The translations under genes were made by a program, and so were the position numbers. The notes under the pieces were generated by a model. It saw nothing but the letters and a program-made list of their open reading frames with translations. It searched no databases and was not told the DNA's origin. From Dromaius novaehollandiae (Eukaryota > Chordata > Aves > Casuariiformes > Dromaiidae), in the NCBI RefSeq assembly GCF_036370855.1, contig NC_088111.1, positions 17,457,501-17,521,500 on the forward strand: 64,000 nucleotides of DNA. Direction: 5' to 3'. How positions within the stretch are numbered: position 1 is the first letter of the stretch; each line of letters opens with the position of its first letter. Shown piece by piece: positions 1 to 41,310 of this stretch.

Positions 1-2145
1 TATGTCTCTGTTGGTGTTTCCCTACCCAGCCCCAGGATGCTCTAGGCCAGTCCGGAGGTGGAAGTGGGGATTGAGTTCACTCTCCCTGCCCTTGTGGAGC
101 TGCATCATTCCCCAGCAGCTACAAAGCTAGGTCATCTGGAGAGAGAAACAGGTGTTTAGGGCATGGGCAAAACATGTCTGTCTGCATGCACAAAGCTCTG
201 GGGAACCTCCTTCCCTTGGATTTAAAACTACACCTACTCCATGGCAGGATGCAAAGTCACTGTCCCTGCCCTAATGTGCTGCCAAGGCTGTGCAGGGGGC
301 TCAGACACAACGCAGCTTTAAGGAATGGTCAACAGTGTGAAAACCTGAAGGTTTTCCTTTCCCAAAGATGGCACTGAAGGGACATATTCACACAGGTGCC
401 CTTGAGGATCTCCTGTGACAACCCCTGCTGTCAGTAGAAGCAGAGAAGCCTCTCCAAAGGTGGATGGTTCACAGCAGGAGCCTAACTGAAGGTCTCTGGG
501 CCACCTCCTCTCCCAGAGCCACTTTGCCCTGTGTGTAGGGGACACCTTGTCAAAGATCGCTAAGCTGCATCAGCCTTTGTGGCCAACCCTGCATTGCGGT
601 CGCGGGGCAGGCTGGGGTGCAGCACCACGAGCAATGCCTTCTGGCCAGCACAGGCAGCTTAGCCCCGAGGTTTGGGAGCCCGGGCCATAGGAGCTGTCCC
701 TGTGCCCCTTGGTCTGCCCACTGCACCTTTCAGTACACTCACACAGGAGAGGCTCTGTGCCCTTTTCCACTTCTCCCAGCACATGAATGAGTTTAGGTTC
801 AGGATTTTTAAGTTCATTTTCTGCACATTTTTCCTCAGAAGCCTCCTCTGGCATTTTTTGTTTGGAGGGAACAGCAGAGGCCACGCCGTGACTTTTACAC
901 ATCAGCTGGGAGGAGCTGGTGAAGGTAATCATTAATGTCTTCTTTCAGATAACCAATTAAACATTGTTAAAGACCCAGGATGTTAACACACAAGTCTGAC
1001 ATTCCAGTAAGAATGTAACATGTAATATGTTCAGGGCATAGGATTACAAACTAGAGATTTGTAGTTTTCCAGAAACGATTCCCGAAAGGGAACCTCTACC
1101 ATCAAACAAGACAGATCTCTCATGATCTCACAGAACTTGGTGCTAAGAGCTCACAGCTTGCACTGTGCAGGACAGATTCTTTCTGAGCCCAAAACCTAAA
1201 ATCCTTTCCCACCTCACTCTTCCCCTTCTGCTCTCATGGTTTGCACGATGCTGTTGTTTCATTAGTTCGTCAAGTACAGTCAGACTGATTGTACTGAGTC
1301 AGGACAGTCTACGCAGCCCAGCAGTAGAGGCCTATGGAAAAATAGAGCAGACCTAGACAAGCCACCTCCCCACTCCCAACACTTGTAGCCCAGGGATTCT
1401 TCGAACCAGAGGCAGTGTTTGTGCGTTCAAACAGCAGCATTTAGTGAGTTTTCCTTTCATGGATTCTCTAAATCACTTCTGAAGCCAGGTGAACTGGCAC
1501 CAGTCCTCGCATGCACCTTGCAGAGCTCCCACCACAGCCTTCCACCAACAGAAAGAAGAGAGATGAGTTCTTCCTATCCTTCATTCCCCATCTTGGGACC
1601 ATTTTTTTCTTAACCCGTGGAAGAACCTTCCCCTGTATTCCACAGAAGTTTAACTCTTTAAAATTTGGTGAGGAACCACCCCCTTTGGTGAGGAACCCTG
1701 CAGAAATCCAGGTAGATGATACCGATCAGATCACTCTTATCCAGCAATCAGAGCACCTTTCCTAGTGGTTAGGAGCATTTGTTCTACTGTACCACGTAGG
1801 CCTGCCCTACATCCTGTAAAGGGCATAGAGCCCAGTTTTTGCTTGAGCTACTTGGGATTTTAGGACGCTACAGCAAACGGAACAGCAACACTAATTATTT
1901 ACTACAGCAGAAAAGAAAAAGGAACAGCTACTATTGCAAGAAGCTGAACTGCAAAGTTAAAAACAGAACAGCTCCCAGGACCCCTCCACCCCCACCCAAA
2001 ATAGAAACCCCCAACAGCACGTGACGCTGCAGCAGAATCCACAGCCAGCCCAACGGGCCGAAATGAAATGGATGGAAACGCATCGTGCCTGAGTCAGGAA
2101 GACATACTTCCCTCAGGCTGCTCCTATCACGCGTAGATCCAGCGC
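1..2145. other. Left flank, no gene recognised
   Basis: I see no open frame with recognisable protein similarity on either strand and no RNA gene in this stretch. Its right end must contain the NME3 3' untranslated region, since NME3 is transcribed leftward and stops at 2146. No canonical AATAAA (TTTATT on this strand) was found close to the stop, so the end of the NME3 transcript is unresolved. A 20-bp tandem duplication lies at 1661-1700. Confidence 0.5.
1661..1700. repeat. 20-bp tandem duplication
   Basis: Two adjacent 20-bp copies share the core tttggtgaggaacc (1661-1680 and 1681-1700) and differ only at their edges. It is a short local duplication with no evident function. Confidence 0.7.
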
Positions 2146-2169
2146 TCAGCCGTAGATCCAGTGCTCAGC
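2132..2169. repeat. 19-bp tandem duplication across the NME3 stop
   Basis: The unit cgtagatccagcgctcagc (2132-2150) is followed directly by cgtagatccagtgctcagc (2151-2169), with one mismatch. On the minus strand the duplication overlaps the last codons of NME3 (His-Trp-Ile-Tyr) and its TGA stop at 2148-2146. Because 19 is not a multiple of three, the downstream copy is out of frame and lies in the 3' UTR. Confidence 0.9.
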
Positions 2170-4065
2170 CATGTCCTCCCAGCAGATCAGCTCCTCTGGG
2201 CGGAACCAGAGGGAGATCTCCTGCTGGGCACTCTCAACCGAGTCGCTGCCGTGAATCACATTTCTGCAGGAAGAAGAAAGGGATCAGTCTGCACTAAGCA
2301 GAGAAAAGGGGGAGGGAAGCTGCAGCTGGGAAAATTTCACCTTGATCAACTTAATAAAACCTACTGAGCCAGTCACAGTGTAAGGTATTCCCTCCCCACT
2401 TTGCAGCTCTCTTCTTTCCGGCTCAGGGCTGGTTGTGGTTATGTTGAACATAGCTTAGGTTGTGGATATGGTAGGAGCTGCAAATTCCCAACACTGCTTC
2501 CTATGAGGAATCACGTTTGCTGCAAGATGAGCTGGAAGTGGCTATTTACTTGGAGATCTGCTTCTTTTTATGTAATTTAAGCTTTGTCTTCAGATTTTAC
2601 CCCCCTGTCAAAGAGGGTCCTGTGAAGTAGGTTTGGTATCAGACACCAAGGAACAGAAACTTAACACTGGAGTCAGATAAAAGCTTTGCCTACCACAAGC
2701 CAGGCTTAGCTACAGCCACCAGAGGTCAGCAGTGGTGAATCTTCACTGGTGAAAGCTGTAGTGCATGTGGGCCTCCTCTGCAGAAGTCCTGCTTGGTTTT
2801 TAATGACTCAGACTTTAGTAGACCTAAAGCAGCTCTCTAGGTGCCCCTCTCCTCCCTTCCTCCTTACAGCCTGACAGAGCCCAATTCCCTGGGGCAAAAA
2901 CCAAATGAAAAGCTCCTACTAGACAGACAGAAATACTAGATTAGATAGAAGAGGCCTCAGAAAGCAGGGAAGACTCAAGCCTAGGCTCCTCCCAAGCTCA
3001 GAAGGCAGAATTCAGCACGGCCTGTGCAGTGCTGCTCTGCAAGCTGCCACGCTGAGCGAGACAGCTGTGACAAGCGCAGAAAAGGCAAACCATGAGAGGC
3101 CCCTGTTACGACCTCTGCTCTGATGCAGACTCGTGCAGCTTAGGCAAGCCTTGCGCGGGAATGCCTGGGCAGGTGCTCACAGAACTACTCGGGGAACAAA
3201 AAGCTCTCACTTGCTGATGTCAGTGCAGAAGTCTCCTCGGATGGTGCCGGGTCTGGAGTCGGCCGGGTTAGTTTCCCCAATCATTGCGCGGACTGTCTTG
3301 ACCGCATCCAGGCCCTGCCAGACCTACGTGACAGGAAAGCTGGAATCAGCTTCTGCAGCTCACCCAGCAGCACAGGCCACAGCATCTCTCCTCCGCATCC
3401 CCTATCTGATCACCCCAGAGGCAGCCAGGAAAGGATCTTGCCAAAAAGTCTTCAAGAGGCAATTCTGAAAACTGATCAGAATTGTGAGTGGGTTTAATTT
3501 ACTGCAGCAAAATGTCCCTTCAGCTCAGTACAGGTGCTTTGAAGGGACCTTTGTGCTTTGCATCAGACCCCAAGCCAACGCTGTTGCCCTTTCTCCTGCT
3601 CCCGGGGTCGGGGAGCGCCGCCCCGCACTCACCATGGCTACCACAGGCCCGGAGCTCATGTACTTCACCAGCTGGCTGTAGAAGGGCTGGTGCCGCAGGG
3701 CGACGTAGTGCTCTCTCAGCAGCTCCTCGGAGGCCTGCGGGGAGAGCGCGAAGCTCCGCTGGGGCGCAGGGGGGGACCGGGGCCGCGGCTCCGCCGGGCC
3801 GCGCCGCGCCGCTCACCTGCACCAGCTTCATGCCCACCAGGGTGAGGCCCTTCCTCTCGAAGCGCCCCACCAGCTCCCCGACGAGGCGCCGCTGGACCCC
3901 GTCCGGCTTCACGGCCACGAAGGTGCGCTCGCCGCCGCCGCGGGCTGCGGGGGGACGGGGTGGTCAGGGGGCGGCGGGGGGGGGGGGTCCCGCGCCCCCC
4001 GCCCCGCCCCGCGCCGCACCGCTCTGCAGGATGTAGGCGAGTAGCGCCAGCGCCAGGCAGATCAT
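2146..4065 (-). CDS. NME3: NME3, nucleoside diphosphate kinase 3
   Basis: Five coding exons on the minus strand: 4065-4020, 3944-3817, 3734-3633, 3323-3211 and 2263-2146. All junctions are GT-AG, the phases agree, and the product is 168 aa (human is about 169). The kinase transfers the terminal phosphate of NTPs to NDPs through a phosphohistidine. Residues 1-15 ([15 protein letters not shown]) form the hydrophobic N-terminal segment typical of NME3, which in known homologues places it at the mitochondrial outer membrane. The nucleotide-binding start [18 protein letters not shown] follows. The active-site motif [12 protein letters not shown] is in the last exon with catalytic His134. The start is chosen because MICL matches the family N-terminus. 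Introns 1 and 2 are only 75 and 82 bp. The stop lies in a 19-bp tandem duplication, giving the ending HWIYG. Confidence 0.95.
2264..3210. other. NME3 intron 4
   Basis: The largest NME3 intron, GT-AG on the minus strand. I see no other gene in it. A sequence at 2715-2727 (ccaccagaggtc) resembles a CTCF core but is weak. Confidence 0.8.
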
Positions 4066-4378
4066 GGCTACGCTCCGCCGCCGCCGGTCTGCTCCGCGCC
4101 CGGCCGAGGCAGCGCGAGGGAAGAGGGCGGAGCGAGGGGCGGCGCAGCCCGGGCCCCGCGGGGCGGGGGCGCGGCGAGGACCCGGCGCCGCTGCTGGCGC
4201 GCCATGGCGGCGCGGCCGCTCCGCCCGGCTGCCCGGCGCCCCACGCCTTCCTGTGCCACCCCGAAACGCGCCCCCCGCGCGGCGGCCCCCGGCGCAGCCG
4301 AAGTGGCGCCGCGGAACGGCCGCGCCGCGGCTGAGGGAGCGGCGGGGGCCGCTCAGCGGGTGGCGCTGCCCCGGCCGC

Positions 4379-4392
4379 GTCTCCATGGCGAC
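4379..4392. promoter_or_regulatory. RFX X-box-like site
   Basis: GTCTCCATGGCGAC fits the X-box pattern RYYNYY-N(1-3)-RRNRAC with a 2-bp spacer. It lies about 315 bp upstream of the NME3 start codon. X-boxes are bound by RFX factors that activate many ciliary genes. Binding is inferred from sequence only. Confidence 0.4.
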
Positions 4393-4415
4393 GGGCGCGG
4401 CCTGCGCGGCGGAGC

Positions 4416-4580
4416 ATGGCGAGCGCCTCCGGGGCTGCCGCCGCCTCTCTGCGGAGCCCCGGCCTGGCAAGCGCGGCGCTGTGCCCAGCCCCAGCAGCTG
4501 GAATAGGAGCTGCCGCTCTCGTTTATGCACCCACAGTCCCGTCCCTCCGCGATGTGTTTGAATTGCCCCGGTGGCTGTAG
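4416..4580 (+). CDS. Possible 54-aa reading frame in the CpG island
   Basis: An ATG at 4416 opens a 54-codon frame starting MASASGAAAASL and ending VFELPRWL before TAG. It is alanine-rich at the start and less biased toward its end. I do not recognise it. It could be part of a first exon of the EME2 locus, an upstream ORF, or chance in GC-rich sequence. No homology to the EME2 N-terminus was seen. Confidence 0.15.
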   Translation: MASASGAAAASLRSPGLASAALCPAPAAGIGAAALVYAPTVPSLRDVFELPRWL

Positions 4581-6591
4581 CCTGTCACACGCTTCCTCTG
4601 CGAGCTGTGTGGTCCTTGCGCTGAGCGTTCGCTCCGCTGCCCGTTGCTAGCAGCAAGATACGTTTAGGTCATGTTTTATATCCTTAAATGTGGCGTTTGG
4701 ACACCTCTTTGTCTGCTTACTCTCCTCCACGCAGCTCTTGCGCTGGGTTTTTCGGTTCTCTGGGGGGTGGCAAGTATCTCGCTGCTTTATCAGACACACT
4801 CCTGAGGGACTTAATACTACATTTGCACCAATAAAATAATCAGAGCTCATGTTCATGCTAGTGAGGCTGTCTCTGCTGCTGTACCGCGATCTGTTCTGCT
4901 ATGCGACCTGCTGTGGAGCAGCTGGTTACAAGCAGGGCTTGGGAGGTCGTGGAGGTTGCAGTCGTGCATGTGTCTGTGTTTCAGAGAAGTGTTCTTGCAG
5001 CTCTCCTCCAGGTGAGTGACCCCCCTGCGCGGGACCAGCCTGGGGAGGCAGCCTGCGGGGACGAGGCACCGTCCCATAGAGAAATACCGGGTGATTTTCC
5101 CTTCCATCGTGGGAATCACACTGGCCACTGAGTCCTCAGGGCTGGTGGGCTCCAGGATCCTGGTTCCCTGAGCTGCCGACGAAAGCTGACATCGGCCGTG
5201 CTGATAGGGAGATGGGAGATGATACTCTCTCTTTGCCAGCTGGTTTCGCATCCCCCGCTGCCCTGCTGCTCGCCAGTTCAGCCTTGCTCATCTCCTTCCT
5301 CTGCCCCCCGTTTCTGCCTAGGTCTCAGCCCCGGCTCCTGCCTTCCTCACCCCTCACCTCACCGCGCCAGCCCGCGGCTTTTCGCCGCCGCCGCCCCGGT
5401 GCTTGGGTGCCAGCAGGGGGAGCGCGGGGAGCGCGGAGCAGCGCTCGGAGCCCGCAGCAGCGCGGCCGCCCAGGGGAGTCCCTGTGCCGTGTCCTGCCCC
5501 AGAGGCAGCAGGCCGGGGCCGAGCTGCCCGCCTGGCCTGCCCGGCAGAGCTGGCAGACACAGGGATGCTGCTGCGGAGAGAGACTTCGGCACGCTCAGCC
5601 GTTAATTCTGATAAGCCTGTAGTACTCACATGCGAGCTGGGATTTTTGTATTTATTTGACATTATTAACCCTCAGATGTGCATAACTTCCTGTCATCTTC
5701 ATGAAAGCATGATTCAAACTTCAAGTCCATCTGGCAAAGCTCCCTAATTAAACAAGATGTTGATACTTTTAACAGGGATAAAAAGCATGTTCTTCACCTT
5801 CCCTTATATTCTTGGAAATAGTTGTACTATTTTGTTGAAATTTCCCAAAAAAGTGCAGCCTGGGAAAGGTACCTGTTGTGGAAGACTTCAGCCCAAACTT
5901 GTTTGGCACGGTTATAGACAGCTGTAAAGAAGGTTTGTAAGGGATGGTGTCGGCTTGTGTTAACTACAGTTTACAGTACTTGCAGAGCCAGCAATGAGGA
6001 GCACGTTGCCTGTGGGCTCACCGGGTGATGTGCACGTGCATATCCAGACTGGCTGCCCTAATCGCAGTGCTCAGAGCTCTCTGGAAACAGGGCTTATGTG
6101 AGCGTTTACAGGTTGCGTATATAGATGGGTGGTGGAGCCTGACTTCCTAGCTAATGATTGTTCAGCCTGTTGGCTAATTTCAGCCTTATTTCACAGAAAG
6201 GGAGAGATTTCAAAGATAATTAAGTTTCTACCAATTTAATAAAAGTAGGTCTTGAGGAAGTGGAGGAGCAGGCTTTGAAAGCTTGCCTGTTTGCCTCTAG
6301 TAACTTAGAGTGTGTGAGCTGATTTTTACAGTTCTTGCAACAATTTGCATGTCACTGCTCAGATACTTGGCTGGAAAGGAAGAAGGACAATTTTATAGAT
6401 GTATGCAGAGATAGTCAGAAATCAATAATCCAGTTAGTGACTCAGTCCTCAAAGAGCACATGCTACAGGAAACTATACTTCCCATTCCTGCATAATTCCT
6501 CTTGTCTTGCACTTGCCTTTTTTATGATGTTTATTAATGCTGATGAAATACCTCTTTTCTCATGTCAGAATTGTTCTCTCCCTCTCCACAG
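4581..6591. other. Gap between the CpG island and the first EME2-like exon
   Basis: No coding exon is recognised. A second CpG-rich patch at about 5330-5580 carries a strong CTCF-like motif at 5410-5425. MRPS34, which lies between NME3 and EME2 in human, was looked for on both strands and not seen. Confidence 0.5.
5410..5425 (+). promoter_or_regulatory. CTCF-like motif
   Basis: CCAGCAGGGGGAGCGC closely matches the CTCF core consensus (CCASYAGRKGGC with G-rich centre). It sits in a small CpG-rich patch (about 5330-5580) separated from the NME3 promoter island. Binding is inferred from sequence only. Confidence 0.45.
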
Positions 6592-9500
6592 GTCTCCTCA
6601 GAGATCCTGGCTTGGACACTTGGATCAAAGTTTTAATTTCCTTGGAGTGCAAATGTTCTTTTGAGCCTAAAGCAATTCCCTGCAGCATAACCTGGAGGAG
6701 AAGTATGCCAAACACTCTGCCTAGTCCAGTGAGTCCCTCCCACTGTCTCTGTAAATGTGAACTGGCAACAGATGTGCTGTGGGGTGAAAGCTTTGGTTTG
6801 GCTGTCTAGGCAGGGCAATAGAGTTGTCAGCCTCAGAAACATTGATTCCCTGTGACCACAGTTAGCTCAAGGAACGGAGCTGAGTGTGATTCTCATGCAA
6901 ATTATTTCAAAGCCAATGTCTTTTATACACCTGCATCTCATGCATGTGTGCATCTAAGGTGAGCCTGGGGAATCTGCAGTAAGCAAGAGAGAGACCACTG
7001 CAAGTCATTCACACAGAGGTTTCAGTGGGTATTCGAGAGCATTTCCGAACCAGATGCTGCATGTGGCATGCTGCCACAGGCACCAGCTGCGTGTCTGGAA
7101 AAGGCTGGTCAAATCTGCTGCAGGGCCCTCAGTTTTGAGAGCCCAGTGATTGCTTCTCAAACCCAGCTCACTGGGAATTCAAAAGAGGGCTCGTACCTTC
7201 TAGTACTAAATAGGATTCCCATCTCAATTTGCTACTGGAAGGTACTGTGTAAAACAGTAGCCGAATGGCAGTGGAGGCAGAAGTAGACTGTTCCTATGCT
7301 CATCCCCGCTACAAGAATTTCAGGTGGAGGCGGATCTGTACTTTGGCTGGTGCTGGGTAAAACATAACAGCTACTGTGGTCCTATAACAGCCTACTGTGC
7401 AGACAAAGCCAGTTTTTCTTAGTTGGCAATTTCTGCAGCTGTCACTGTCTTCCTTACCAGGTTATTTTTGCACCTTCAGTGATTTGCATGTTCGGGGAGC
7501 TTTTTACCTTTCCATTCATGCTGTTTCACCAGCATAATGACAGGTAGCCTTGCAAGCGCTAGTGCCTCCCGGTGTGTGGGCTCTGAATAGGTGGAGACTC
7601 ACAGTTCTGCTTTCATGCTGGCCATCTGTGTTGGAAAGGTGCAATTGGGAAGGATTTCTCTGTCCTTAGGATGACCCTATGGTGAAGACTGAAGAGGAAG
7701 AAGAGGTGTTGGTGTTGATAGAGCCAGAAGATTTTCTCAAGCATCTCTTTTCCCTAAACCAGGTGATACAGATCTCGGAGCCAGGCCCATACAAAGACTG
7801 CCACGGCAAAGTTATTTTGCAAAACAAGCATGGAAGGGGAGGAGGGATTCGTTCAAAACCGGCATTGGTACACCCTGAAACAAAGCTGTATTATAGAGTG
7901 CATTGGTCTGACAGTAGAGAGCTTTTGGGGAGAAGCCAAATGTGAGTGTAGTAATAGATCTTTAAGGGTGATATGCATTCAGCTGCCTTTAAAACCATGG
8001 CAGGACATGCTGCTTTCCTCAGAGAAGATCTGGGCATGTCAGACTCATCTTTCCTTGTATTTAGCTCTTCCGTGTTCATGGTGTCCATAAAACATTTGCT
8101 GGAAAGAAACCTTCAAGTTATACAGGCCTTGGAAACACTTGCATTTTGAAGCAGAGATTTGTGGTTAGTTATCATTTGTGTGCGGTCACACAACATTTTA
8201 TTTATACCTGTGTAGGCAACCTGTGCTTCTGCCCTGAGAACTTCAGTCCATCCGGCCCAGTCCAGGAATAGAGAATGAAAGGCTAGAATAGGCAGCGCCT
8301 GTGAGGAGATCAGTGCTAACACTGCAGGCAGAAAGGTCAGCCAGAAAAAGCAGTGGGATATTGGCAGATGTGGCATGCACAAAGGCGACACCAACCCTAC
8401 AATCCCCACCACAGTCTGAGACCGGCTCCTGCCAATTCCCAGTGATGAGACGCACCCTGAACGGCCTGTACTGTCCTGCTGCTCTCCAGGGATGCGGAGG
8501 GGTCGTTTCAGGGAGGCAGGCTGCTACAGACTGAGATGTGATTTGTCTTGCCTCAGAGCTTTGTCGGTGCCCCATCAGGGACTTGGCCTGATCTGAAGCC
8601 GCTGTTGTCTTTGGCCAGTCTGGAGGGCTCCTCCACCAAAACCTACAGCCTGGCTGTCATTGCTAGTCTGGGGGCAGCTGGCCAGAAGCAAACTTGATAC
8701 CTTTATCTCCAGCTTCAAATGAGATTAGGAGGCAGCAGATGCAGGTTGATTAAATTTGGCCTTTTCCTCTTTATCGACATCAGCCCCGAGGTGTGACCAC
8801 GTAGAGCTTGTGGAGAATGTGAGCCTTGTGTCTTGCTTATAGGTGTGACCAGGAGCAGGGCAGGCACTGAGCCTCAGAAAGCAGAGTCACAGATCCCCAC
8901 CTGGCCCAGAGCTGTCTGTGACCCACAAGGAGATACAGGAGGTGAAACTTCTTACAGTCCTTGAAGTTCTGTGTTGCTTGTGGTTGAGCTGTACAGAAAA
9001 GGTTCCCGCTGGTGAGCCCTTGCGTGTAATGAATGCTTTGCTGGGGGGAGACATTGACTGACTTGGAACAAGTTGAATCCTCACGTATCCTTCTTCACCC
9101 TGGCTTGCAATGGGGTTGGATAGGGATAGCAGACTTGGAGGCAGGATTTTGATCCTCCTGTTTGTAAGACCCTGGTTCAGATCTGACCTAGTGGGAGCCT
9201 GCCCCCACTCTCCACCCTTCCAGGAACTGCCTCATTAGGCATGAAAGGGGCTGTTGGCTCCAGCCCTGGCCTCTGTCAGGTGTCTGCCTCGCAAAGCCTG
9301 TACCCCACAGCAGAGCAGGGGTGCTCCTTGTGATGCTACTGCAGTCACAAACTAGGTCAAATACAATCTAAACCCATGCTTGATATCCCTTGAGCTAAAT
9401 TCCTGCCCTGTTGTCTGAGTATGGCCCAAAGAGGGTTATGACTCTCTGGCTTACTGGGAACTAAGAAGGATGAGCAGGCTTTACCGCTGTGCTGTGTAAA

Positions 9501-11271
9501 CAGAGCTAACCCGGTCAGCCCAGCCTCTTCCCGCTTCCAGCCCCAGCCCAGTGTCACCTGCTGAGGGATGTGTTGTGCCCATGTGCTTTCCTCACTCCTC
9601 TCCCCGGGCGCCTTCGGAGGTCAGGGCTGACACCAGCACAACTGAAGTTTAAGCCGGGCAGGTGGCTTTGGAGGCAGGTGAGGGCCTCAGGTTGACCCGG
9701 TTCACAGCTGGCGCATGTGAGCTTGTCTTTGTCTTGTGTGGAGTGTCACGTGTTTCACCTGTGTCCCTTCCCTTCCAGGCATTGGTGATGCTCCAGCTGT
9801 GGGGTAACGTTGAAGTACTGCTCTTAGACGTGGCAGAAATTCGGCCAGCATGTCCCTGCGCTGACTACGGCAATAGCAAAATGCCCATACTAGTGAGTTG
9901 TATCGCTGGAACCAGCCAAATCCCAAGACCAGAGCTTTGGAAAACTTCAGTGGACGTTACAGAAGCACTTGTCTGTGAATGCAAGCCTGTCCTCACTGCT
10001 GTCGGTATAAGGGCTGGGACTAGATGATCTCTCCAGATCATTTCCAATCCTCTGTGCCCATGAAAATTCTCTGTTCTGAAGGTGAGTGCAGTTCTGATTC
10101 AGCATTGGGGAAGAAAGGAAAATGACAGCCTTAGAAAAACCTTTTCAACAAGGTCTTCTGGAGCTTTCCAGGGAAGGAAGGAAAATTGTGAGGAAAAAAT
10201 GTTAGTCCTGGACAGAGAGGATTTTTGGCAGGAAGCCAAATGCCTAATGGAAGGGGAAGGTGGCAGCATTTGGGATCTGCAGGCCTGTGCTCTCTGTGCC
10301 CATCCCTAGGTCTTGCTCTCAGCAATCCATCTTTCTGCAGGAGACTGAGGCGCTGCCTTCCTGTGCTGCCAGGGCCTGGGCCTCAGCCAGCGGGGCACGA
10401 GTGGAGAAGGACAGCACAGGACTCCGGCAGGTGCGGAAGAGACAAACCCAGCAGTTTAATAGAGTCAGCCCTGCAATGGCAGCAGATATAGCAGAAATAT
10501 ATCCTTCTCTGGGGCTCCTGTTACAGGTAAGCCCTCAAACCCCTTGGTGTCCTGTTAAAAGCTTGCTGTATGGAGGATTAAGGCAGGGATGGGTGCCACA
10601 TGTTTCCTGGCCGAAAGGCCTCTGTTGATGGACCAAAGCTATCAGTGTGAAATTACCTCTGCAGAAAGGCAAGGGTTGTCTCCAGATGAGAGTGTTTGAC
10701 TTAGACAATAAGTTTTGTATCAGCAGAACCTACTTACAGCTCCTGTTAGCCCATGCAGGCCTCTGTCTGCCTTGGTCTTAAGTAACAGGACCAGCTCAAA
10801 GTTTCTTTGCATATTTGGTTCCCAGTCCCAGCTGGTGCAGTTGAGGGTCTGTTGTATGCATCCCATTGCCCTTATCCAACATGGTCTGTCCAGCAGCTTT
10901 TGCTTGCTCTGACTGTTTGGGAGGTCTGTTTGCAAGGGGGAGATGTTGATTCTTCTGAGTTTTATGCCCTGAACCTGGTATGTTTGGATGAAAGCTCGGG
11001 CATGGATCCTCACGGTAACAATGGGACTGAGCCTTGCAGTGGAGGTGGGAGCCTTAGCTTAGAGCATCCACGTCAGCTCCTTCCTTCTCTTGTCTGCTTG
11101 GAGGCCTATGAAGAATGCAGCACAGAAGCTGAAAGATGACTCCTGAATGACATCTAGATTAAATGAGACATCAGCCAGAAAGCCCACCATATTGGACCAG
11201 ACTTATCCTGCCTTAGCTATATCTTCATAGTATCCACCAACCCCGACCGTCTCCTGGACCTGAGTATGTAG
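6592..11271 (+). pseudogene. EME2: EME2-like gene, decayed
   Basis: Five exon-like blocks follow the order of EME2, the non-catalytic partner of the MUS81 structure-specific endonuclease. Blocks: 6592-6728 (KCSFEPKAIPCSITWRRS), 7670-7762 (EVLVLIEPEDFLKHLFSLNQ), 9779-9892 (ALVMLQLWGNVEVLLLD), 10341-10526 (QQFNRVSPAMAADIAEIYPS) and 11104-11271 (HHIGPDLS, STNPDRLLDLSM). The first four have good AG and GT borders. In the block at 9779 the family-like frame changes near 9828, where TWQKFGQHVPALTTAIAKCP continues in another frame. The last block has in-frame stops at 11137-11139, 11155-11157 and 11164-11166, although similarity runs on to the natural end at 11271. The first exon and the exon between 7762 and 9779 were not found. 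I infer loss of function, as the C-terminal helix-hairpin-helix region is disrupted. Assembly error is the alternative. Confidence 0.75.
10009..10078 (+). repeat. CR1 LINE 3' tail fragment
   Basis: The sequence gggactagatgatctctcc followed by catttccaatcctctgtg resembles the conserved 3' end of avian CR1 elements in sense orientation. It lies in an intron of the decayed EME2 locus. Only the tail is recognisable. Confidence 0.6.
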
Positions 11272-11416
11272 TGGGACTGTGGTCCATGTTGGTCAGCCTC
11301 GCTGTTTTATCTGCCAAGACTCGGCAGTGGCTGAGCTGTTGCTGGCATGACAGTGCTGCTGGGAACCCAGCCAGTGGAAGCAGCTGATTCTGTTTCAGAG
11401 CAGAGACTTGCACATT

Positions 11417-11422
11417 AATAAA
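11417..11422 (+). other. Candidate polyadenylation signal of the EME2 locus
   Basis: AATAAA lies about 145 bp downstream of the position of the natural EME2 stop (11269-11271) and is followed by a T/G-rich stretch. It is suitably placed to end the EME2 transcript. Confidence 0.4.
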
Positions 11423-13769
11423 TGTCTTGTTACAGATGCTTTCTTCAGCCTCTTGGCTCTCCTTTCCCCTTTCAGCCCCCCCGCTTTATGTCCCTCTGGC
11501 TGGAGCACAGTGGAAAGGCTGTCTCCTAAGAGGGTGAAGCAATGTTTGGAACAGGAACTAGATGGGAAAGTGTTAGTGAGCTGTCCCTGAACACCACAGG
11601 TGTTCACAGCTCCTCAGCTGAGACAGCTGCATGAGAAGTCTATCCTGTGCTGCCTTTCAGGTATATTGTTGAATGAGCCGAATATTTTCTGCAGCGTCCT
11701 GACTTCTGATATCCTGCTCCTCACTGGTGCTTTGGTGAGGCTGGACCTGTTACTGTAGGTCCTGCTTGTGGCTTCCTTGGGCAGGTGGGTCCTGCTGCAG
11801 TTGCTTGGGAAAATGTTCACCAACAGTCAAAATTAGGTGGTCATGGAGGAACCACATCATAGAGTAACATGGAGCTCAAGGCAGCGGAGGGGAATTTGGT
11901 GGCTGAGCTCCCAAACCAAGGAGATGCCTGATAAGCTCCAGAAAACTCCATGCAATATGATGCATTAGGTTGGGATTCACTTTTCCCAAAGCAAATACTT
12001 TGGTTTATATTTGGAAATAGCTGCGGCCAGGACAGGAGGGGTTGGGGATCCCCTCGTGTCTGAGGTTTCACTAATGCTAGCTGGGGACTTGCTCACTGAA
12101 GTGCAACTCAGTGCCTTCCACACTGACATAGAAACCCCCCAAACTTCCTCCCGTGAACCATGGCTCACCGGCTCAAAGCAACACCACTGATACTGCAACA
12201 GTATAAAGTTCCTCCTTCCCAGTGATCTTTTTGTCTCCATCTAATACGTGAATTAGTTCCAGGGAAGAAGTCCAGCAAGGCTGTTTCTGTGGCTGGAGCA
12301 CCAATACAGATGGACTGACAGAGAGCGCTGCTACTTTAAGGTTCTCATTCGACATCCGTAACCAGAGGAGGAAGCTTGATCTTGACTTAAAGACTCATAA
12401 TGTGGGAAGGAAGGAAAGGTACAGAATAAATGCACACTGTACAAAAAGCTTTATATGAGCAGGTCTCATGTAAAGGCCCAGGAGAAAAGGCAGCAGCTGG
12501 GTACTTCATGTTTCATGCAGGTGGTAACAGTGGTGGGAGGAAATCTGGGGAGTGGACAGGTTAAAAGGCATTTCCTGTGATACTTATCGCAACACTTTTC
12601 CACATTTCAACAACTTTTCCACTTTGCTGATCACATCAGGTTATACCTAAATCATTTGTAAATGCTGGGCTCTCTGGAAGAGAGGCGAGTTCAGAGGTCA
12701 GTGAAAAGCAACGTGAGCAGAAGTCCTGTGCTAAACCAGGGCCCTGCAGAGAGCAGCCAGGAACCACAGGGAACTGTGATCGTGGCGGCACCCAGCACTG
12801 CTGGAGCGGCAGACTGGGTATGATTAAGACAGCACGTGGCCGGGCTGCCATGAGCAGGCGGTGCTGGGCTCCCTAACGCAGCCCCTCTCCCACAGTGCTC
12901 CTCGCTGTCCTGCCTGTCGGGTCTCACAGCAACGCTACTTTGGCACTGAGGGCTATAAACAGGAGTAGGCTGAACTGCCAAATGCAACCATCTAAGTGGC
13001 CTCCCAGCTGGATCGGCTCGAGGATCACTTCCCTGAGCCAGTCCCTTCTGGCATGATGACAGAGCCCCAGCAGTTAAAACTGCTTAGGAACCTGATTCAT
13101 CCTCTTGCTACTCAATTTGTTCCCAGACAATGCCTATATGTCCTAATCTGCTAGGAGCAGCTAAAGCACTTTTACCTCCTCTTTCCTGCCTAATATGTTA
13201 AGGTAGATCAAATGCAAAAAAAGCAGGCAGGCTTTTCTGAGTGTGATCTGCTGGCAGCAATACCAGGTCACTACTGGATTACTCTGACTAAAGTGCCAGG
13301 TCCTATTCCAGCATTTCCTCTCAGCACATATGGGAGAACAGGGGCCTGCCACAGGCAGTGCACAAATCTGTTATTGGCCTTTTGTACAAAGAAGCTGCAC
13401 TGATTTTCAGTCTCTGGAGGGGATATTTGGGGTTGTTTGTCCAGACATGTAACCTGTTAAGAGATTCAGATTATAAAATTCTGCAGTACATCAGTCTCCC
13501 TTCTTGTTTGCAGCCACAGGTGTCAGTCTGGCTCTGCTAGAGATCAATCTAGGCCAGACACTGATGTTTCAGAGAAAAGTGCAGGAAGCCTCCAGGGGCA
13601 GAGGCAAGATAATCTCCACTTCCTTTATGTCAGCTAGATCTGACAAACAGATACTACATTTAAAACAGCCTCTCCAGTTTGTTAGCTGTGCTAGAGTGGC
13701 TATTTTTGACAACCACATTCAGATTCATGCCTTCAAGGGCCATAAGAGGAAAGCAAGACGGTTTATACT
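11423..13769. other. Gap between EME2 remnant and SPSB3 3' end
   Basis: I see no gene in this stretch. A further AATAAA on the plus strand at about 12424 has no coding context. SPSB3 and the EME2 remnant are convergent here. Confidence 0.5.
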
Positions 13770-13775: not shown

Positions 13776-14456
13776 ATTACAGTTTAATACAGTCTTTGAT
13801 ACAGGAGAAGCAGCAGTAGCCAACATGCAAAGCAATTAAAGTCATCAGGGGCTCAAGAAAGATCACTAACAGCTCAACTCCTGTAAGTAACTGCTCTTTC
13901 ACAACAGTGCCAATGGTCACATAGCATAGATGCATCTTTAGGAGCCCATTTCCCTACATGCTGCCGTTCAGTCATGCCCCACCATTGTGAAGAATTCATT
14001 GCAAATACCAAACCAACACACAACAGTTAGAAGGAGGGAGACTCCACTTTGACTTTTGTCTTTTGGTAAGTCAGTTATTTGATTATAGTTTGCTAAAAGT
14101 GTGCTTTGAAATTAGGAGGCCATTCTAAGTCTTGTCTCTGCTGAACAGTCTACAGAGAAGAGCGATTCTTCAAAAAGAGGTGATGACTTTGATACCAAGG
14201 CAGGAGATTAAGCTCAGATATTTGGCTGCAGTTTACCTGTTCCACAGAGATGGGACCTCTTTGAGTCAATAGGTATTTTCAATGCAAGTGATGGATGTTT
14301 AGCATAAAGATTTCAAACAGCATAAGAGAAATCTTTGCAAACAAGTAGAAACCGATGTCCCCATTAAGAAAGAGGTGCATCAGGCCTGGACTGCCCTTGC
14401 AGGCAGCAGAACAAAACCCCACTCGACCCCCTCAAGGCAGTTCGTCTGAAGAGACA

Positions 14457-17400
14457 TTATGTCCTCCTGCACCGCTTCCTTTGGCAGGCCTCTGCATCTG
14501 AGCCACAAGAGCTATCTGAGTCGCTTCCCGATGAGGAGGAGGAAGGCTTCGATGTGCTATAGTTCATGCTCAAGACCCACCCAAGTTTGTTATGTAGCAC
14601 TTGTTTGAGTCCTGGTGGCAATGGCAGCACCTCCAGTGTGTCCACGTAGTTAGGCAGGAGCTGGCGCAGGCGATAACAGCAGAGATACTGGAGGGATGTG
14701 CAGCTGGCACAGGAGCGGATCACCTTCATGCTGCTCTTGGCCGCTGTGGAGCACACCATGGGGTAGAACTTCTTGTTCTGCAGCTTGGTAGCTGCAACCC
14801 CTGCCAGGGACAGCAGCAAGGAGGTTTCAAGTTAGTTTTGACTAGGGCATCTCACTTCTCTCAGCTACCCCGAACGCGCTAACTACAAAGCCGTCAGGAA
14901 ACACTTGGAAAACAGCCTTTTGGAAAACAAGTCTATTAAATAACACATTTAACCTTCCTCCCACTCACTTCATGCCTTGATTTTTCTTCTATTTTGCCAG
15001 TATTTTCTCCTGCAGTCCAGCTGCAGGCAGACTTGCAGTTCAACTAAACATGCAGCGTTTCGTTTCCCTCCGTTTCAGTTGCTATGCCTGACAGCTGGTG
15101 GGGCTGCCCTTCCTCTTACCTATGCATTTCCGGTTTTTGAAGAACGTGAGTGTCCCATGCCACGTGTCCAAATGCACCCCAATGATGGAGCCTTGGCCAA
15201 ACCTCGAGGAGAAGTTTGTTTTGTCTCCCTTGTGATGCAATAGTCCTTAAAACAATAAACCTTACATTCAGTAGAAAGCCTGTGTTCCACAAATTCATCC
15301 CAACTTCCATATACGTCACCACAAGCTCCCAGCTGGTACCAGCTTGGCCACTGCCTAAAAAATCCTTTAGCTTCCTCATCACTCACTCACTATTCTCCCA
15401 CCCCAGAGTGTGGGGTGAGAACAGGAGAGGATGTTGAGGCTTCGGAACATCACGGTACAGGCAGTAACATAAAAAACCCTGGATCAGTGCTATGCAACCT
15501 GCAGTCCAGCGTCCCTGGAGATTCATGCACCAGTTCTAAGGGTCTGCAAAAGGCGGCTAAGAAAAGCCAGCTTGAACTTGCTGCAGACAGCTGGCTCGTG
15601 AAATCAGTAATGAAGCCTGGACCTCTGCTAGAAGAGGAGGTGGGAGCGCATGAGTCTGAAGAGCACTGTTCCACATCATTAGCTTGAAGTACAAGTTGTT
15701 GGTACTTTTCTGCGTCAGTACGAACGAGAGGAGGAAGGAAAGGAATGCCTGGGGCAGGGTGAGTACCTCTGGGTCCTCCCCAGAAGTGCTCCTTTGACGT
15801 AGGCAAGCACAAGCAAGGTGAGACACCCCAAAAGCTGAAAGCAGCCCATCCTACACAGCCGGCTAGGGAGTGCCTGGCACAGCATTACAGCACATACAAC
15901 GCCAAGGCAAACGCTGTGGGTGCGCAGTACTGCTGCTGAAATGAGCAGCCCACTGCACACCGTTCAAGCACATACAGAGGCCGGCTGCAGGCAGCAGCTC
16001 CAGTTCTACCTGACAAAGAGACTCAGTTCTGGAAGCCATTTTGGCCTCAAGCCAGTTCAGAACATTCAATTCTCAGACTCCTAGGAAAATGCTAAGGCCT
16101 TTGCTGGCCTTCCAGCCATCCTGCCCTCTGACACTTCCCTGCCTGGATTACCTGTGTAGGAGAGTCCCCAGCTGTCTTCATCCTTGCCCAGCAGACTGCA
16201 GAAGGTGTGGCGGTACTTGTCCAGATTCACATCCGACGTCCCAATTCCTACCATCTGGAGGCAGGCAGGTCCCGGGAAGAAGAACACAAGCTCTTAGTGT
16301 CTGCTGCAGGCACCAAACACTCTTAAAGCAACAAAATGCAATTGAGATTCCACCTCTGAGTCTCCCTTCCTTTTCTTGGCACAGTCCGCGATGTTAGAGG
16401 CTTTGGTGAAGCCAAGTCAGATGTTTCAGGCCTCTGAGGGTTTGCCCTGCACTGCGGGTACTCAGTAGCTGGACTGGGGAGGTGCATCGTCAGCAGAGCT
16501 GGGGGAGCTAACAGGGCTGTGGCCGCTGCACTAACAGCGTCGAGCAAGGTCAGGCTCCTGATCACAAGCCACACGAGCTGTGACACAGCCGTGCACCCAA
16601 CACCAGCCCTGCTGGAGGTAAGGACCAATTCCAGGGGGAAGGAAGGGAGTAAGCATTGCACGCCCCAGTGCACTCAGCAGAACATCACTCCGAACCACAC
16701 ACCTCCCTGAACACTTTCCATCGCTGAGGTTGAGCACTGGTGTGGCCTGATCTTGCTATTTTAAGTCTGTCACTAATGACCTACCAGTAACACAGAAAAG
16801 GGATGCAGGAAAGCTGGGTTCCAGTCATGATTGCTGTGGCGTCGTGCAAAACTGCTTACCCTCCCCGCTTCAGTTTCCTAACTGCTAAACGAGGATATCT
16901 ATGTGAACCACTGGATGAAGCTTGCTGTCCTGCTAAAGGAATGCTGGACATCTCTGTAAGCGACTCTGTTCAACATACCATGTCTGTGCCATAGACTGGG
17001 GAGGTCATCTTGATCTCCCAGAAGTGCTGCCCGTCTGCCAGCTCCTTGTTGCCCCGGATAGCAGCCGTGCCACAGCTGTATTCCATGTGGAAGTTCACCT
17101 TGCGGTTGTCGCAGGTCAGCAGGGTGGCCGTCGACTTGTTCAGGTCATCCCACACCCAATCAAAGTCTGTTCAGGAGACACACAGGGGACAAACATGGGA
17201 GAATGCAGCTGGGGAGCAAACATCGAGCCAAAGCACAGACAGTCATTTGTTTCGAGGCCCCGTCAAAACTCTATTTTTTTTTTTTTGTTTTTTTACTGTT
17301 TAGCAGGGTAAATCCTTAGCTGTGCAAGTTGGCAGTTATTTGAGGCCTGAATTATTCTGCAGTGTCCCAACAGGGACAGTTCAGTGCTCTCTCCTGCCTG

Positions 17401-20400
17401 AGGCTGTCAGCATTCACCAGTTCTCATCTCAGTTTTCAGTTTCAGTTGCAAAGTGGCTTCTCCAGCCTCAGCAGTTGCGGTTCCCCTGTTCCAGGTGCTA
17501 GCGGTGCCCAAGGCTGGGCACGAGCCGGGAGCAGAGGGAGAGCAGCTGATACAGCTCTCAGGGCCTGGCAAACCAAACCCAGCCTGGAGGAGCGAGCCAC
17601 ACGGTCACTCAGCTGGGCTCGAGTAACAGCAACGCAGAGCGAGGTGGAGCCCTGGGTTTCTTTGGAGAGAATCATACTCATCTCTTGTAGGCTCAAGGGG
17701 CTACAGGCAGAGCACAAGCACTCTGACGGCTCCCCTATCCTACGTGCTCTCTTGGCCAGGCCAGGCCCACCCTCTGCCTAGCTTTCCTCACCTGCTCCGA
17801 GCAGGCCCTGCCACGTACCTGGGCACCCTGCCAGCTGCACCAGGGATCAGCACTAACAGGGCAACAACCACAAGGGCCAGTTTCACTTGTGGCCAGAGCT
17901 GGATTTGAAAGCAGGTCTCCAGAGGTGAACTCTGATTCACTGACAGGTTCAGCCCTGAGCCCTCGAATCACCACAGAACGCATGTGCTTGTAACCTCCCT
18001 AAGGTCTGCCCAGTCTTGAGATGTAAACAGAGGAGCACTGCGTGCAGCGATGGAGATAAGGATCCCCGCGCAAAACTAGGCAGCTGCACAGGGCGGGGGA
18101 GGCAGGCCGTGCCACCACTCAGCCAACGGGAGTGGGGCCGGGACTGCACCCACCGCGAACCCCAGAGGAGTACGCCGGGCAGCTGAGGAGCCCCTTGCTT
18201 ACACTCATCCTCCTCGCCGCACTGGCAGTCCTTGACGCGGTGGATGGCGTGCAGGCTGGAGCAGTAGGGCGCCTCGTTCTGGTTCTCGCAGTTGCAGTAG
18301 GATTCTCCCGTCACGGGGATGGCGCTCGGGATGGAGGGCGACAGGGAAGAAAACTCCGGCTCCGAATCCGAGTCGCTGTGCTGCCGGGGAGAGCAGAGGA
18401 ACGGTCGCTACTAAACACCCCCACGATCAGAGAGCTGGACCTGCAGCCAGCAGAGATGCCTGCTCCCCCCACAGCCAGGCTGCTCTGGGGGCACCCACGC
18501 AGCGCAGAGCCACGCGGGGAGGTCCCCAGGCTCACTCTGGAGCCAGCAGCAGCACGGCTGCATCGTGCCCAGGCCTGGCAAGGGGTTGCGTCAGTGAAAA
18601 CACTCTGCTTCGAGGAGCGGGCTAGCACCTGGCTGTGCTGCAGAGCCTGCCTCCCAAAACTGGAGAGGATCTTGGGGAACCTGGCACCGTAGGATGCAGA
18701 TGTGCTCTTTGTGCCTCTGTAGTTTCCAGCTCCACCATGTCCAGAAAACTCCCACAACTGCAGGGGTTAAGGAGGAGGGAAGGGGCGCAGCCGGCAGCAG
18801 CGTGACAGGCTCTGAGCAGTGCAGGTCTTTGGCGTACTCCACGATAGAGCCGGGTTTTCAACATGCCCGTTACGGGCTCTTGGGAGGGCTGGAGGCCACG
18901 TCCAAGGCACCACAAACAGCAGGCGCACACACTGCTGTATGCAGGATCTGTGCACCTCCAAAGGGGCCCGTGCCTCCGCTGCCGAGCCGGGAGAGAGCCG
19001 CACTGCTGAAAACCCTGCTCTAGCAAGACTGAGAGCTGGAGGAGAAGCGAGATAAACAAGACGAGGAGGAAAAGGGAAAGAAAGGAGGCCAGGCAGGGGA
19101 GCCGGCAGAACAAAGCAGAACCAGTTAAGCAGTAAGGCTGCGGCCCCTCATACCAGCGCTGCAGACAGGCCCACAGGGAACCTGCTGGAGGATTAAAAGG
19201 CTTTTGTTTACTTTGACGCATGAACACAAAAACTTGATTTGCTGTTCCCTGACGTCAAGAGACTGAAGTGTCCCCACACTGGACACTACAAGAGCTCTGT
19301 CCCGCCCCATATGTTAGGGGAGGTTTGGTGTCACCTAAAGGAGTAGACCTCAGCGGGTTACCCTGGGTTTACGCACTGGTCAGATATACCTGCTCGTTAC
19401 TCATCCCCACCCCAACGCCCGTGGCAGATTTTGTAATCACTATTTAAAGACAAAACCCTTTTGAACTCATGTTTCTTTAGCTGTGTAAGACAGCAGGACT
19501 TGAAAAGACTCAGGCTTACTTATCTCCTGCCAACCCCCCCTCTCCTGTTCTAAATCTGCCCTGCGCATTAGAAAGCTTCACTTCTGCCTCTCATTGCCCC
19601 TCCATAACTGCTGCTCTCTAGAAATCTGGCTGTTCCTATCACTGCAGAAACATGAAGCTACTTTGACAGCAGAGAAAAGGCTCATTTTCTTGGAGTGCTG
19701 CATACAGATTTGGACATAGTGCTCTGGCAGTGGCCTTGCAATGCTTTAGCCTATCTTTTAAGCACCAGGAGCCGTTCCCTGTGTTCCCACCACCACACTC
19801 ACTGCTTGGGGAATCCAACTCACGTACTTGAGGACTGGGGAGATGGGCGAAGGGGGCAGAGGTGAGTCTAACTCTCTCCTTCTTGCACTGTTTTACTGAC
19901 TGCTTTCCCTGCTGCATTCCCATCTTCCAGCACACCTGCAAGCTGGGGCCAGATTCAGAAGTGATGTGCACATTACAGGTTGGGAAGCATAAGAGAATTT
20001 AAATTAAAAGGTATTCAAGTATGAATTGAATGTGAAGCAGCCCCCACTCCCTCCAACACCAGCTGCATGAGGGCAAGAAGTTAGCATAGCTATACAGCAA
20101 GCGAGATTGGAGAACTGATCTACGTTAAATATGTATTTAGATCACTGTTTAAAAAGTATGTGTCAAAAATATTTTATATGCTACATATACTACACACACG
20201 CATTTTATATACTTTTAAAAAAGAGAATTTAGCTTAGTACCAATCAATTCCCTTGGCTCAAATAACCAGAGGGAGCAGAGCTGTAGTGCACAGTGGCAGG
20301 AGCTGGCGATAAGCAGCTTCGTCCCTGTCGCACAAAGACACACTTGGGAGTCCCACACCCCAGGTTAGCAGGACCTGGAGCCAGACAAGCAACCACCTCC

Positions 20401-20694
20401 ATCTGCTCAGACAGCCTGTAAGAGCCTTTTTTGATTTTTGGCCATTTTTTTGTGCTGAAATTCTAGCTGCTCAATTACATGGACCTCGAGCAGCCAGTGC
20501 CTGCTGTCGGGGGAGAGGGAAGCTTTCCCTCGTGTTGCTTTAAAGCTGTCTGGACACCAGCTTACCTGCCCATCGGAGTCATAGCCCCAGCCCCGTGCGC
20601 CGGTGGCCAAGGCGACGGCCCGGGTGTCTGCGTCGCGGCGCACCCCGCTCAGGACGAAGTGCCAGGCCCTGCTGCTGCGCGTGCGTCGCGCCAT
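14457..20694 (-). CDS. SPSB3: SPSB3, SPRY domain and SOCS box protein 3
   Basis: Six coding exons on the minus strand: 20694-20566, 18380-18203, 17166-16979, 16254-16152, 15245-15120 and 14800-14457. All have GT-AG borders and matching phases. The product is 355 aa, the length I recall for human. SPSB3 is a substrate receptor of Cullin-5 ubiquitin ligases; the human protein is reported to target nuclear cGAS. The N-terminus [17 protein letters not shown] matches the family, followed by an acidic Ser/Asp-rich segment (about residues 44-60). The SPRY domain spans roughly 85-270, with [15 protein letters not shown] and [19 protein letters not shown]. The SOCS box follows at about 276-316, with BC-box [13 protein letters not shown] and Cul5-box-like [11 protein letters not shown]. 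The C-terminus is serine-rich and ends CQRKRCRRT. The coding start exon begins at 20714 after a good acceptor, so an upstream 5' UTR exon is required. Confidence 0.97.
16805..16905 (+). repeat. MIR-type ancient SINE fragment
   Basis: The stretch contains gcttcagtttcctaactgc followed by gaggatatc, matching the MIR core region (cctcagtttcctcatctg then ggggata) with many differences. It lies in SPSB3 intron 3, antisense to the gene. The divergence fits a very old insertion. Confidence 0.55.
17885..17925 (-). repeat. Possible MIR fragment
   Basis: The segment ggccagagctggatttgaaa then gcaggtct resembles the reverse complement of the MIR promoter-proximal part. It is short, in SPSB3 intron 2. Confidence 0.3.
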
Positions 20695-40569: not shown

Positions 40570-41310
40570 CACTGTTACGGAGGCTGGCAGGACCTCCCTG
40601 AGGTCTCTGGTCCATCCCTCCTCAAAGCCCGGCCACCTACAGCGGGTGTCTCAGGGCCATGTCCAGGCACAGTTTCAATATCTCTGGGGATGGAGTTTCT
40701 CTATCCCTTTCCTGGTGCCTGACCACCCTTGCAGTAACTTTCTTTTGCTTATATCTAATGGGAATTTCCCATGCTCCAACTTGTCCCTGCAGCCTCTTGT
40801 CCTCCCACTGCGCACCTTCAAGAAGAGTCTGGCTCTGTTTTCTCTGCAGCCTCCCATGAGGTAGCCGCAGAGAGCAGTAAGATTCCCCAAGCCTTCTCTT
40901 CTCCAGGCTGAACAAACCCAGCTCTCCCAGCCTCTGCCCATACATCACGTTTTCCAGGTCCCTGACCACCCTGGGGGCCTCTGCTGGACTTGCTCCAGTC
41001 TGTCACTGTCTATCTTGTCCTGGGGAGCTCAAACTGGACAGTGTCAGGTTTGGTCTTACAAGTGCAGAGCAGAGGGGAAGGATCACTTCGCTCGCCTGGC
41101 TGGCTATGCTCAGGATAATACAGCTCAGGACGCTGTTGGCCTTCTTTGCTGCAAGGGCGCACTGCTGGCTCCTCTTCAGCAAGTCCGCCAGGACCCCCAG
41201 CGCTTTTTCTGCAGAGCTGATGCGGTGCACAAGGACTGCCATGGCTCCCATTTGGGGCAGTACTCCCAGGGGACGTGTCTTGTACCGCTCCTAAGTACAG
41301 AACACCAACA
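40570..41310 (-). repeat. CR1 LINE, 5'-truncated copy
   Basis: The plus strand carries the reverse complement of the CR1 3' region. Landmarks are cagcctcttgtcctcccact, agaagagtctggctctgtt, cttctcttctccaggctgaa and gccttctttgctgcaagggc, all standard CR1 words. On the minus strand a piece of the reverse-transcriptase C-terminal frame is still legible (GRAGFVQPGEEKAWG). The copy is degenerate. Edges are approximate. Confidence 0.85.

What the first reader, a model, noticed from the sequence alone, without database searches (positions are those of the whole stretch)
6592..11271. EME2 appears to be a dying gene in this genome
Seen: five exon-like blocks with EME2-like peptides and mostly intact splice sites, a change of frame inside the block at 9779-9892, and three in-frame stops in the last block while similarity continues to the natural C-terminus (GPDLS, NPDRLLDLSM). 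Known: EME2 and EME1 are alternative partners of MUS81. Inference: the MUS81-EME2 activity (S-phase fork restart in mammals) has been lost or left to MUS81-EME1 in this lineage, recently enough that exons are still legible.
Basis: partly seen in the sequence, partly recalled or inferred. Interest (0 to 1): 0.7.

Follow-up and report, generated by a model that had tools for sequence, protein, structure and literature searches.

The report
Broken EME2 repair gene, probable bird
Between its usual neighbour genes, this probable bird genome carries a decayed copy of EME2, a helper subunit of a DNA-cutting repair enzyme, while its sister gene EME1 looks intact; gene losses of this kind are common, so it matters for bird DNA repair but is not a new kind of thing.

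Summary
Five EME2-like exon blocks align in order with human EME2 (score 313; 60 DNA shuffles reach at most 65), between NME3 and SPSB3. The last exon, read without indels, has stops at 11137, 11155 and 11164; under cheaper frameshift costs the aligner reads one stop and two frame changes. Either way it is broken. NME3 and SPSB3 align without stop or frameshift.

Added here: EME1 in the same genome (contig C18) has no stop or frameshift over 314 aligned residues. A human EME1 search of the genome found only that gene and this remnant. Of 105 sites identical in human EME1 and EME2, the remnant keeps 60, the genome's EME1 85. EME2 exon 1 and the central ERCC4 stretch were not found. MRPS34, beside EME2 in human (recalled), lies intact-looking 2.4 Mb away.

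Correction: the frame change in 9779-9892 scrambles about 22 residues, but exon 7 follows in frame; alone it is weak evidence.

Best reading: a unitary EME2 pseudogene. "Recent" is not shown; MUS81 was not tested. EME2 pseudogenes are known in two mole-rats (PMC8851862).

The parts
6592..6728 (+). EME2 exon 2 remnant (human residues about 84-128), AG before and GTGAGT after; start placed by hand
   Evidence: 0 of 500 shuffles; phmmer: EME1 28 bits, EME2 21 bits
7670..7762 (+). EME2 exon 3 remnant (human residues about 129-159); end placed by hand at a GTGATA donor
   Evidence: 0 of 500 shuffles; E=0.27 alone
8900..8941 (+). weak candidate for the end of the exon before exon 6; followed by GT
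   Evidence: 9 of 500 shuffles reach it
9779..9892 (+). EME2 exon 6 remnant; frame changes near 9827; 114 nt long, so exon 7 follows in frame when read in the first frame
10323..10526 (+). EME2 exon 7 remnant, open; first part of the C-terminal helix-hairpin-helix region; W293 of human EME2, shared with human EME1 and this genome's EME1, is arginine here
11104..11271 (+). EME2 terminal exon remnant, broken
11137..11139 (+). premature stop TGA (in both readings)
11155..11157 (+). premature stop TAG (reading without indels)
11164..11166 (+). premature stop TGA (reading without indels)
11417..11422 (+). AATAAA polyadenylation-signal-like hexamer
   Evidence: read directly
2149..3954 (-). NME3, four aligned exons, no stop or frameshift from human residue 14 on (ends approximate)
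   Evidence: Pfam NDK
14454..20694 (-). SPSB3, six aligned exons, no stop or frameshift (ends approximate)

Best explanation
The locus is a unitary pseudogene of EME2: the orthologue in its ancestral place, with introns, that no longer encodes a working partner of MUS81. Shown: ordered exon remnants, a broken terminal exon (44 codons from the first stop to the natural end), no detectable first exon or central ERCC4 stretch, and an open EME1 elsewhere in the genome. Inferred: the C-terminal domain through which EME proteins are believed to bind MUS81 (PMC3973302, passages) is lost, so no MUS81-EME2 complex forms, and the gene became dispensable, probably because MUS81-EME1 and other nucleases cover its work.
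For: Spliced alignment 313 against at most 65 in 60 shuffles; 163 with human EME1. NME3 and SPSB3 flank it, then NUBP2-like and IGFALS-like genes by Pfam domain (names and human order recalled). Broken terminal exon. Exon 1 not found in 1-6591 and no central ERCC4 block. NME3, SPSB3 and the genome's EME1 (314 aligned, 184 identical, no stop, no frameshift) are clean by the same method. Human EME1 finds only the C18 gene (4 of 6 matches) and this remnant (2 of 6) in the genome. Sites identical in human EME1 and EME2: remnant keeps 60 of 105, genome's EME1 85 of 105. The intron phases of that EME1 (1, 0, 0, 2, 0, 2, 0) fit the remnant where it can be read: aligner 0 after exons 2, 5 and 7, and by hand 1 before exon 2 and 0 after exon 3.
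Against: AG and GT at most block edges and an AATAAA remain, and exon 7 is open. Chicken EME2 transcript was measured by array and qPCR with sequenced products (PMC4855354, passages), so a bird EME2 can be transcribed. No reads, transcripts or other birds could be examined. Human EME2 is a distant query, so a missing exon 1 or ERCC4 stretch may partly be divergence. Exon 2 alone is closer to EME1. The count of stops depends on the alignment costs. The site comparison favours the genome's EME1, because human EME1 is its own orthologue.
Confidence: 0.87

Rival explanations
1. EME2 is working and the lesions are assembly or base-calling errors.
For: No reads could be inspected; most block edges keep AG and GT.
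Against: Several separate lesions in one exon; exon 1 and the central ERCC4 stretch not found; NME3, SPSB3 and EME1 of the same assembly are clean.
Confidence: 0.04
2. A shortened or re-spliced EME2 is still made, with another terminal exon or a truncated C-terminus.
For: Exon 7 is open and in frame after exon 6, and an AATAAA remains; chicken EME2 transcript is reported (PMC4855354, passages).
Against: Similarity runs through the broken exon to the natural end; no exon 1 found; the remnant misses 45 of 105 sites common to human EME1 and EME2, W293 among them, where the genome's EME1 misses 20.
Confidence: 0.06
3. This is a decayed duplicate and an intact EME2 lies elsewhere in the genome.
For: Searches of the genome with EME2 itself did not complete (protein; DNA).
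Against: Human EME1 picked up this remnant at E=0.008 but no third place (6 matches from 11 scored candidates); an intact EME2 should score better. The copy sits beside NME3 and SPSB3 with introns. My odds for this rival fell from 0.06 to 0.03.
Confidence: 0.03

Closest known systems
EME2 unitary pseudogenes of naked mole-rat and blind mole-rat (PMC8851862, passages)
   Same: Same gene, reported lost in single lineages
   Different: Mammals; lesions not compared with these; here a probable bird, with no detectable 5' end
Human EME2 (PDB 7f6l_B, 379 aa)
   Same: Ordered exons covering residues about 84-159 and 222-379; 98 of 231 aligned residues identical
   Different: Broken terminal exon, scrambled end of exon 6, residues 1-83 and the central ERCC4 stretch not found
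EME1 of this genome (C18) and human EME1 (PDB 9f98_B and others)
   Same: Paralogue with matching intron phases where readable; exon 2 of the remnant scores higher to human EME1
   Different: EME1 is open throughout the aligned 314 residues; the remnant scores 163 with EME1 and 313 with EME2

Membership tests
EME2 orthologue (by descent) | Ordered similarity to EME2 greater than to EME1 | tested here: met
   313 against 163; exon 2 alone favours EME1
EME2 orthologue (by descent) | Position between NME3/MRPS34 and SPSB3 (human order recalled) | tested here: met
   NME3 and SPSB3 flank it; MRPS34 is 2.4 Mb away
Functional EME2 | Intact C-terminal helix-hairpin-helix region | tested here: not met
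   broken terminal exon
Functional EME2 | Central ERCC4-like domain | tested here: not met
   412 of 500 shuffles score as high as the best match; divergence from human could contribute
Functional EME2 | First exon with start codon | tested here: inconclusive
   not found in 1-6591 (146 of 200 shuffles score as high) nor beside the relocated MRPS34; probes are short
Unitary pseudogene | Introns retained, ancestral location | tested here: met
Unitary pseudogene | Disabling mutations | tested here: met
Unitary pseudogene | No functional copy elsewhere | tested here: inconclusive
   human EME1 found no third place; searches with EME2 itself did not complete
Unitary pseudogene | Relaxed selection (dN/dS) and no protein product | not testable with these tools
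   no close relatives or RNA data at hand

The most novel reading that the evidence does not exclude
A rearrangement between NME3 and EME2 exon 2 carried MRPS34 2.4 Mb along the chromosome and took away the shared promoter and first exon of EME2. EME2 then decayed as a bystander of a chromosome break, not because fork restart was shed adaptively; if many birds share the break, a large vertebrate clade lives with MUS81-EME1 alone.
Probability: 0.22. Interest if true: 0.55.

Novelty: new member of a known kind. Interest (0 to 1): 0.35.

Why it matters
A vertebrate lineage with EME1 but without EME2 would show that this activity is dispensable or replaceable, and would be a natural control for work on EME1/EME2 redundancy. 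It would also help annotators of bird repair genes. As a gene loss it is ordinary, with mammalian precedents.

Tried and rejected
Rejected or weak: (1) EME1 origin: EME1 scores about half of EME2 on the locus, and EME1 itself is on C18. (2) Retrocopy: introns present. (3) Exon 1 candidates at about 4915-5619: dropped, since the exon 1 probe scores no better than shuffles. (4) IECIGLTVESFW at about 7890-7930 for the ERCC4 stretch, seen by eye: not the best place in the ungapped test. (5) A block for human residues 178-221 placed from 8824: only its last 14 residues have some support (9 of 500). (6) MRPS34 in the window: 20 tiles scored 34-59, three further tiles 34-36. The best, 59 at 39001-46000, just exceeds its 40 shuffles (maximum 57), but its alignment is poor and the gene was then found elsewhere. 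(7) EME2 exon 1 beside the relocated MRPS34: low-complexity matches only, probes at shuffle level. (8) genome contigs: 595 pattern matches, no relative. (9) NCBIfam: nothing for exons 3 and 7. (10) Self-comparison: nine weak matches, none within 6.6-11.3 kb; no tandem repeat in 3500-12000. (11) Papers: (1, 5, 4 and 4 papers) and the partial listings (20 of 1,469; 25 of 86; 5 of 20,203) showed no report of EME2 loss in birds; I judged from listings and from passages of PMC8851862, PMC4855354, PMC9307636, PMC10298005 and PMC3973302. Only open-licence PMC papers are held. on MRPS34 in birds listed 8 of 225, none holding the name.

Full report
Where it is. The window is C14:17,457,501-17,521,500 of an assembly of 1,468,444,375 bases in 271 contigs. 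I take it for a bird from genome size, gene order and CR1-like remnants (about 9.93-10.09 kb, and 40.6-41.3 kb on the minus strand), recognised from memory and not by a call.

What is there. Human EME2 residues 77-379 align to 6000-12000 on the plus strand in order, with introns, at score 313. Controls: 60 dinucleotide shuffles, mean 43.9, maximum 65; 40 shuffled proteins, maximum 59; reversed protein 50; 37 of 40 six-kb tiles at most 62, the other three overlapping the locus on the plus strand. Human EME1 scores 163. With cheaper frameshifts the two scores are 356 and 205 on 6500-11400.

Block by block. Seven tested segments of exons 2, 3, 6, 7 and 8 (6592-6728, 7670-7762, 9779-9892, 10323-10526, 11104-11271) each exceed all 500 local shuffles, one narrowly. 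Exon 7 finds human EME2 in the PDB at E=2.5e-6, EME1 next at 4.5e-5, and Pfam EME1-MUS81_C above cut-off. Exon 2 alone prefers EME1 (28 against 21 bits); exon 3 alone is weak (E=0.27). A block ending at 8941 is marginal (9 of 500). The central ERCC4 stretch (412 of 500) and exon 1 (146 of 200) were not found.

Lesions. Read without indels, the terminal exon has stops at 11137 (TGA), 11155 (TAG) and 11164 (TGA), while similarity runs to the natural end, GPDLS...NPDRLLDLSM. With cheaper frameshifts the aligner keeps the first stop and replaces the others by two frame changes. In exon 6 the frame changes near 9827; the exon is 114 nt long against 39 human residues (222-260), and in its first frame it reaches exon 7 in frame with about 22 wrong residues and no stop. 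Two compensating changes are poor evidence alone; the mole-rat study removed such cases (PMC8851862, passage).

The sister gene as control. Human EME1 searched against the whole genome gave six matches (11 candidates scored): four at C18:9,575,336-9,579,663 and two in this window, at 6570 (exon 2) and 10350 (exon 7). Two of the four unspliced C18 rows listed stops, but the spliced alignment has none: 314 residues aligned in eight exons, 184 identical, no stop, no frameshift. Of 105 sites identical in human EME1 and EME2 the remnant keeps 60 and this EME1 keeps 85 (Fisher p=0.0003); the comparison favours EME1, because human EME1 is its own orthologue. So the assembly can show an open EME gene, and EME1 remains. 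MUS81 was never asked for by name; the ERCC4-domain search returned two places, which I read as XPF and FANCM and which say nothing on MUS81.

Neighbours. NME3 (from residue 14) and SPSB3, on the minus strand, align without stop or frameshift. An NUBP2-like exon (Pfam ParA) and an IGFALS-like leucine-rich frame of 629 residues follow (names recalled). This is the human EME2 neighbourhood as I recall it, except that MRPS34 is not between NME3 and EME2 (tiles over 1-7000: 34-36, shuffles up to 50). It lies at C14:19,889,975-19,891,532, 2.4 Mb away, with residues 1-197 aligned without stop or frameshift. No EME2 first exon was seen beside it. Whether the bird or the mammal order is ancestral was not tested, so the bystander reading stays a proposal.

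Age. If neutral since loss, three stops in 236 codons fit 45-75 My for recalled rates of 1.5-2.5e-9 per site and year, with 95% limits between about 10 and 220 My. This counts all three stops, which makes uncertain.

What is known. EME2 is a non-catalytic MUS81 partner with a C-terminal helix-hairpin-helix domain (PMC3973302, passages). EME2 pseudogenes are reported in naked mole-rat and blind mole-rat (PMC8851862, passages). Chicken EME2 transcript has been measured (PMC4855354, passages), so loss in all birds should not be assumed. My searches listed no report of EME2 loss in birds, within an open-licence library.

Changes after checking. My confidence rose from 0.83 to 0.87, and the odds of a second intact copy fell from 0.06 to 0.03; the truncated-gene rival fell from 0.07 to 0.06; the novel case moved from a lost MRPS34 to a relocated one (0.20 to 0.22); interest moved from 0.33 to 0.35.

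Noticed in passing
L014 (C14:19,883,000-19,892,999), gene at 19,889,975-19,891,532: MRPS34, beside EME2 in human (recalled), is intact-looking 2.4 Mb from the EME2 remnant on the same contig.
   Followed up: partly
L010 (C18:9,572,500-9,582,000): EME1 with eight aligned exons, no stop or frameshift.
   Followed up: yes
9925-10090 and 40640-41290: CR1-like retrotransposon remnants, recognised from memory; the first lies in the intron after exon 6.
   Followed up: no
30912-32798: IGFALS-like leucine-rich-repeat gene, one stop-to-stop frame of 629 residues on the minus strand (Pfam LRR).
   Followed up: no
53239-60984: Coiled-coil gene fragments on the plus strand; Pfam DUF4472 at 53239-53514, taken for CCDC78 from memory.
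   Followed up: no
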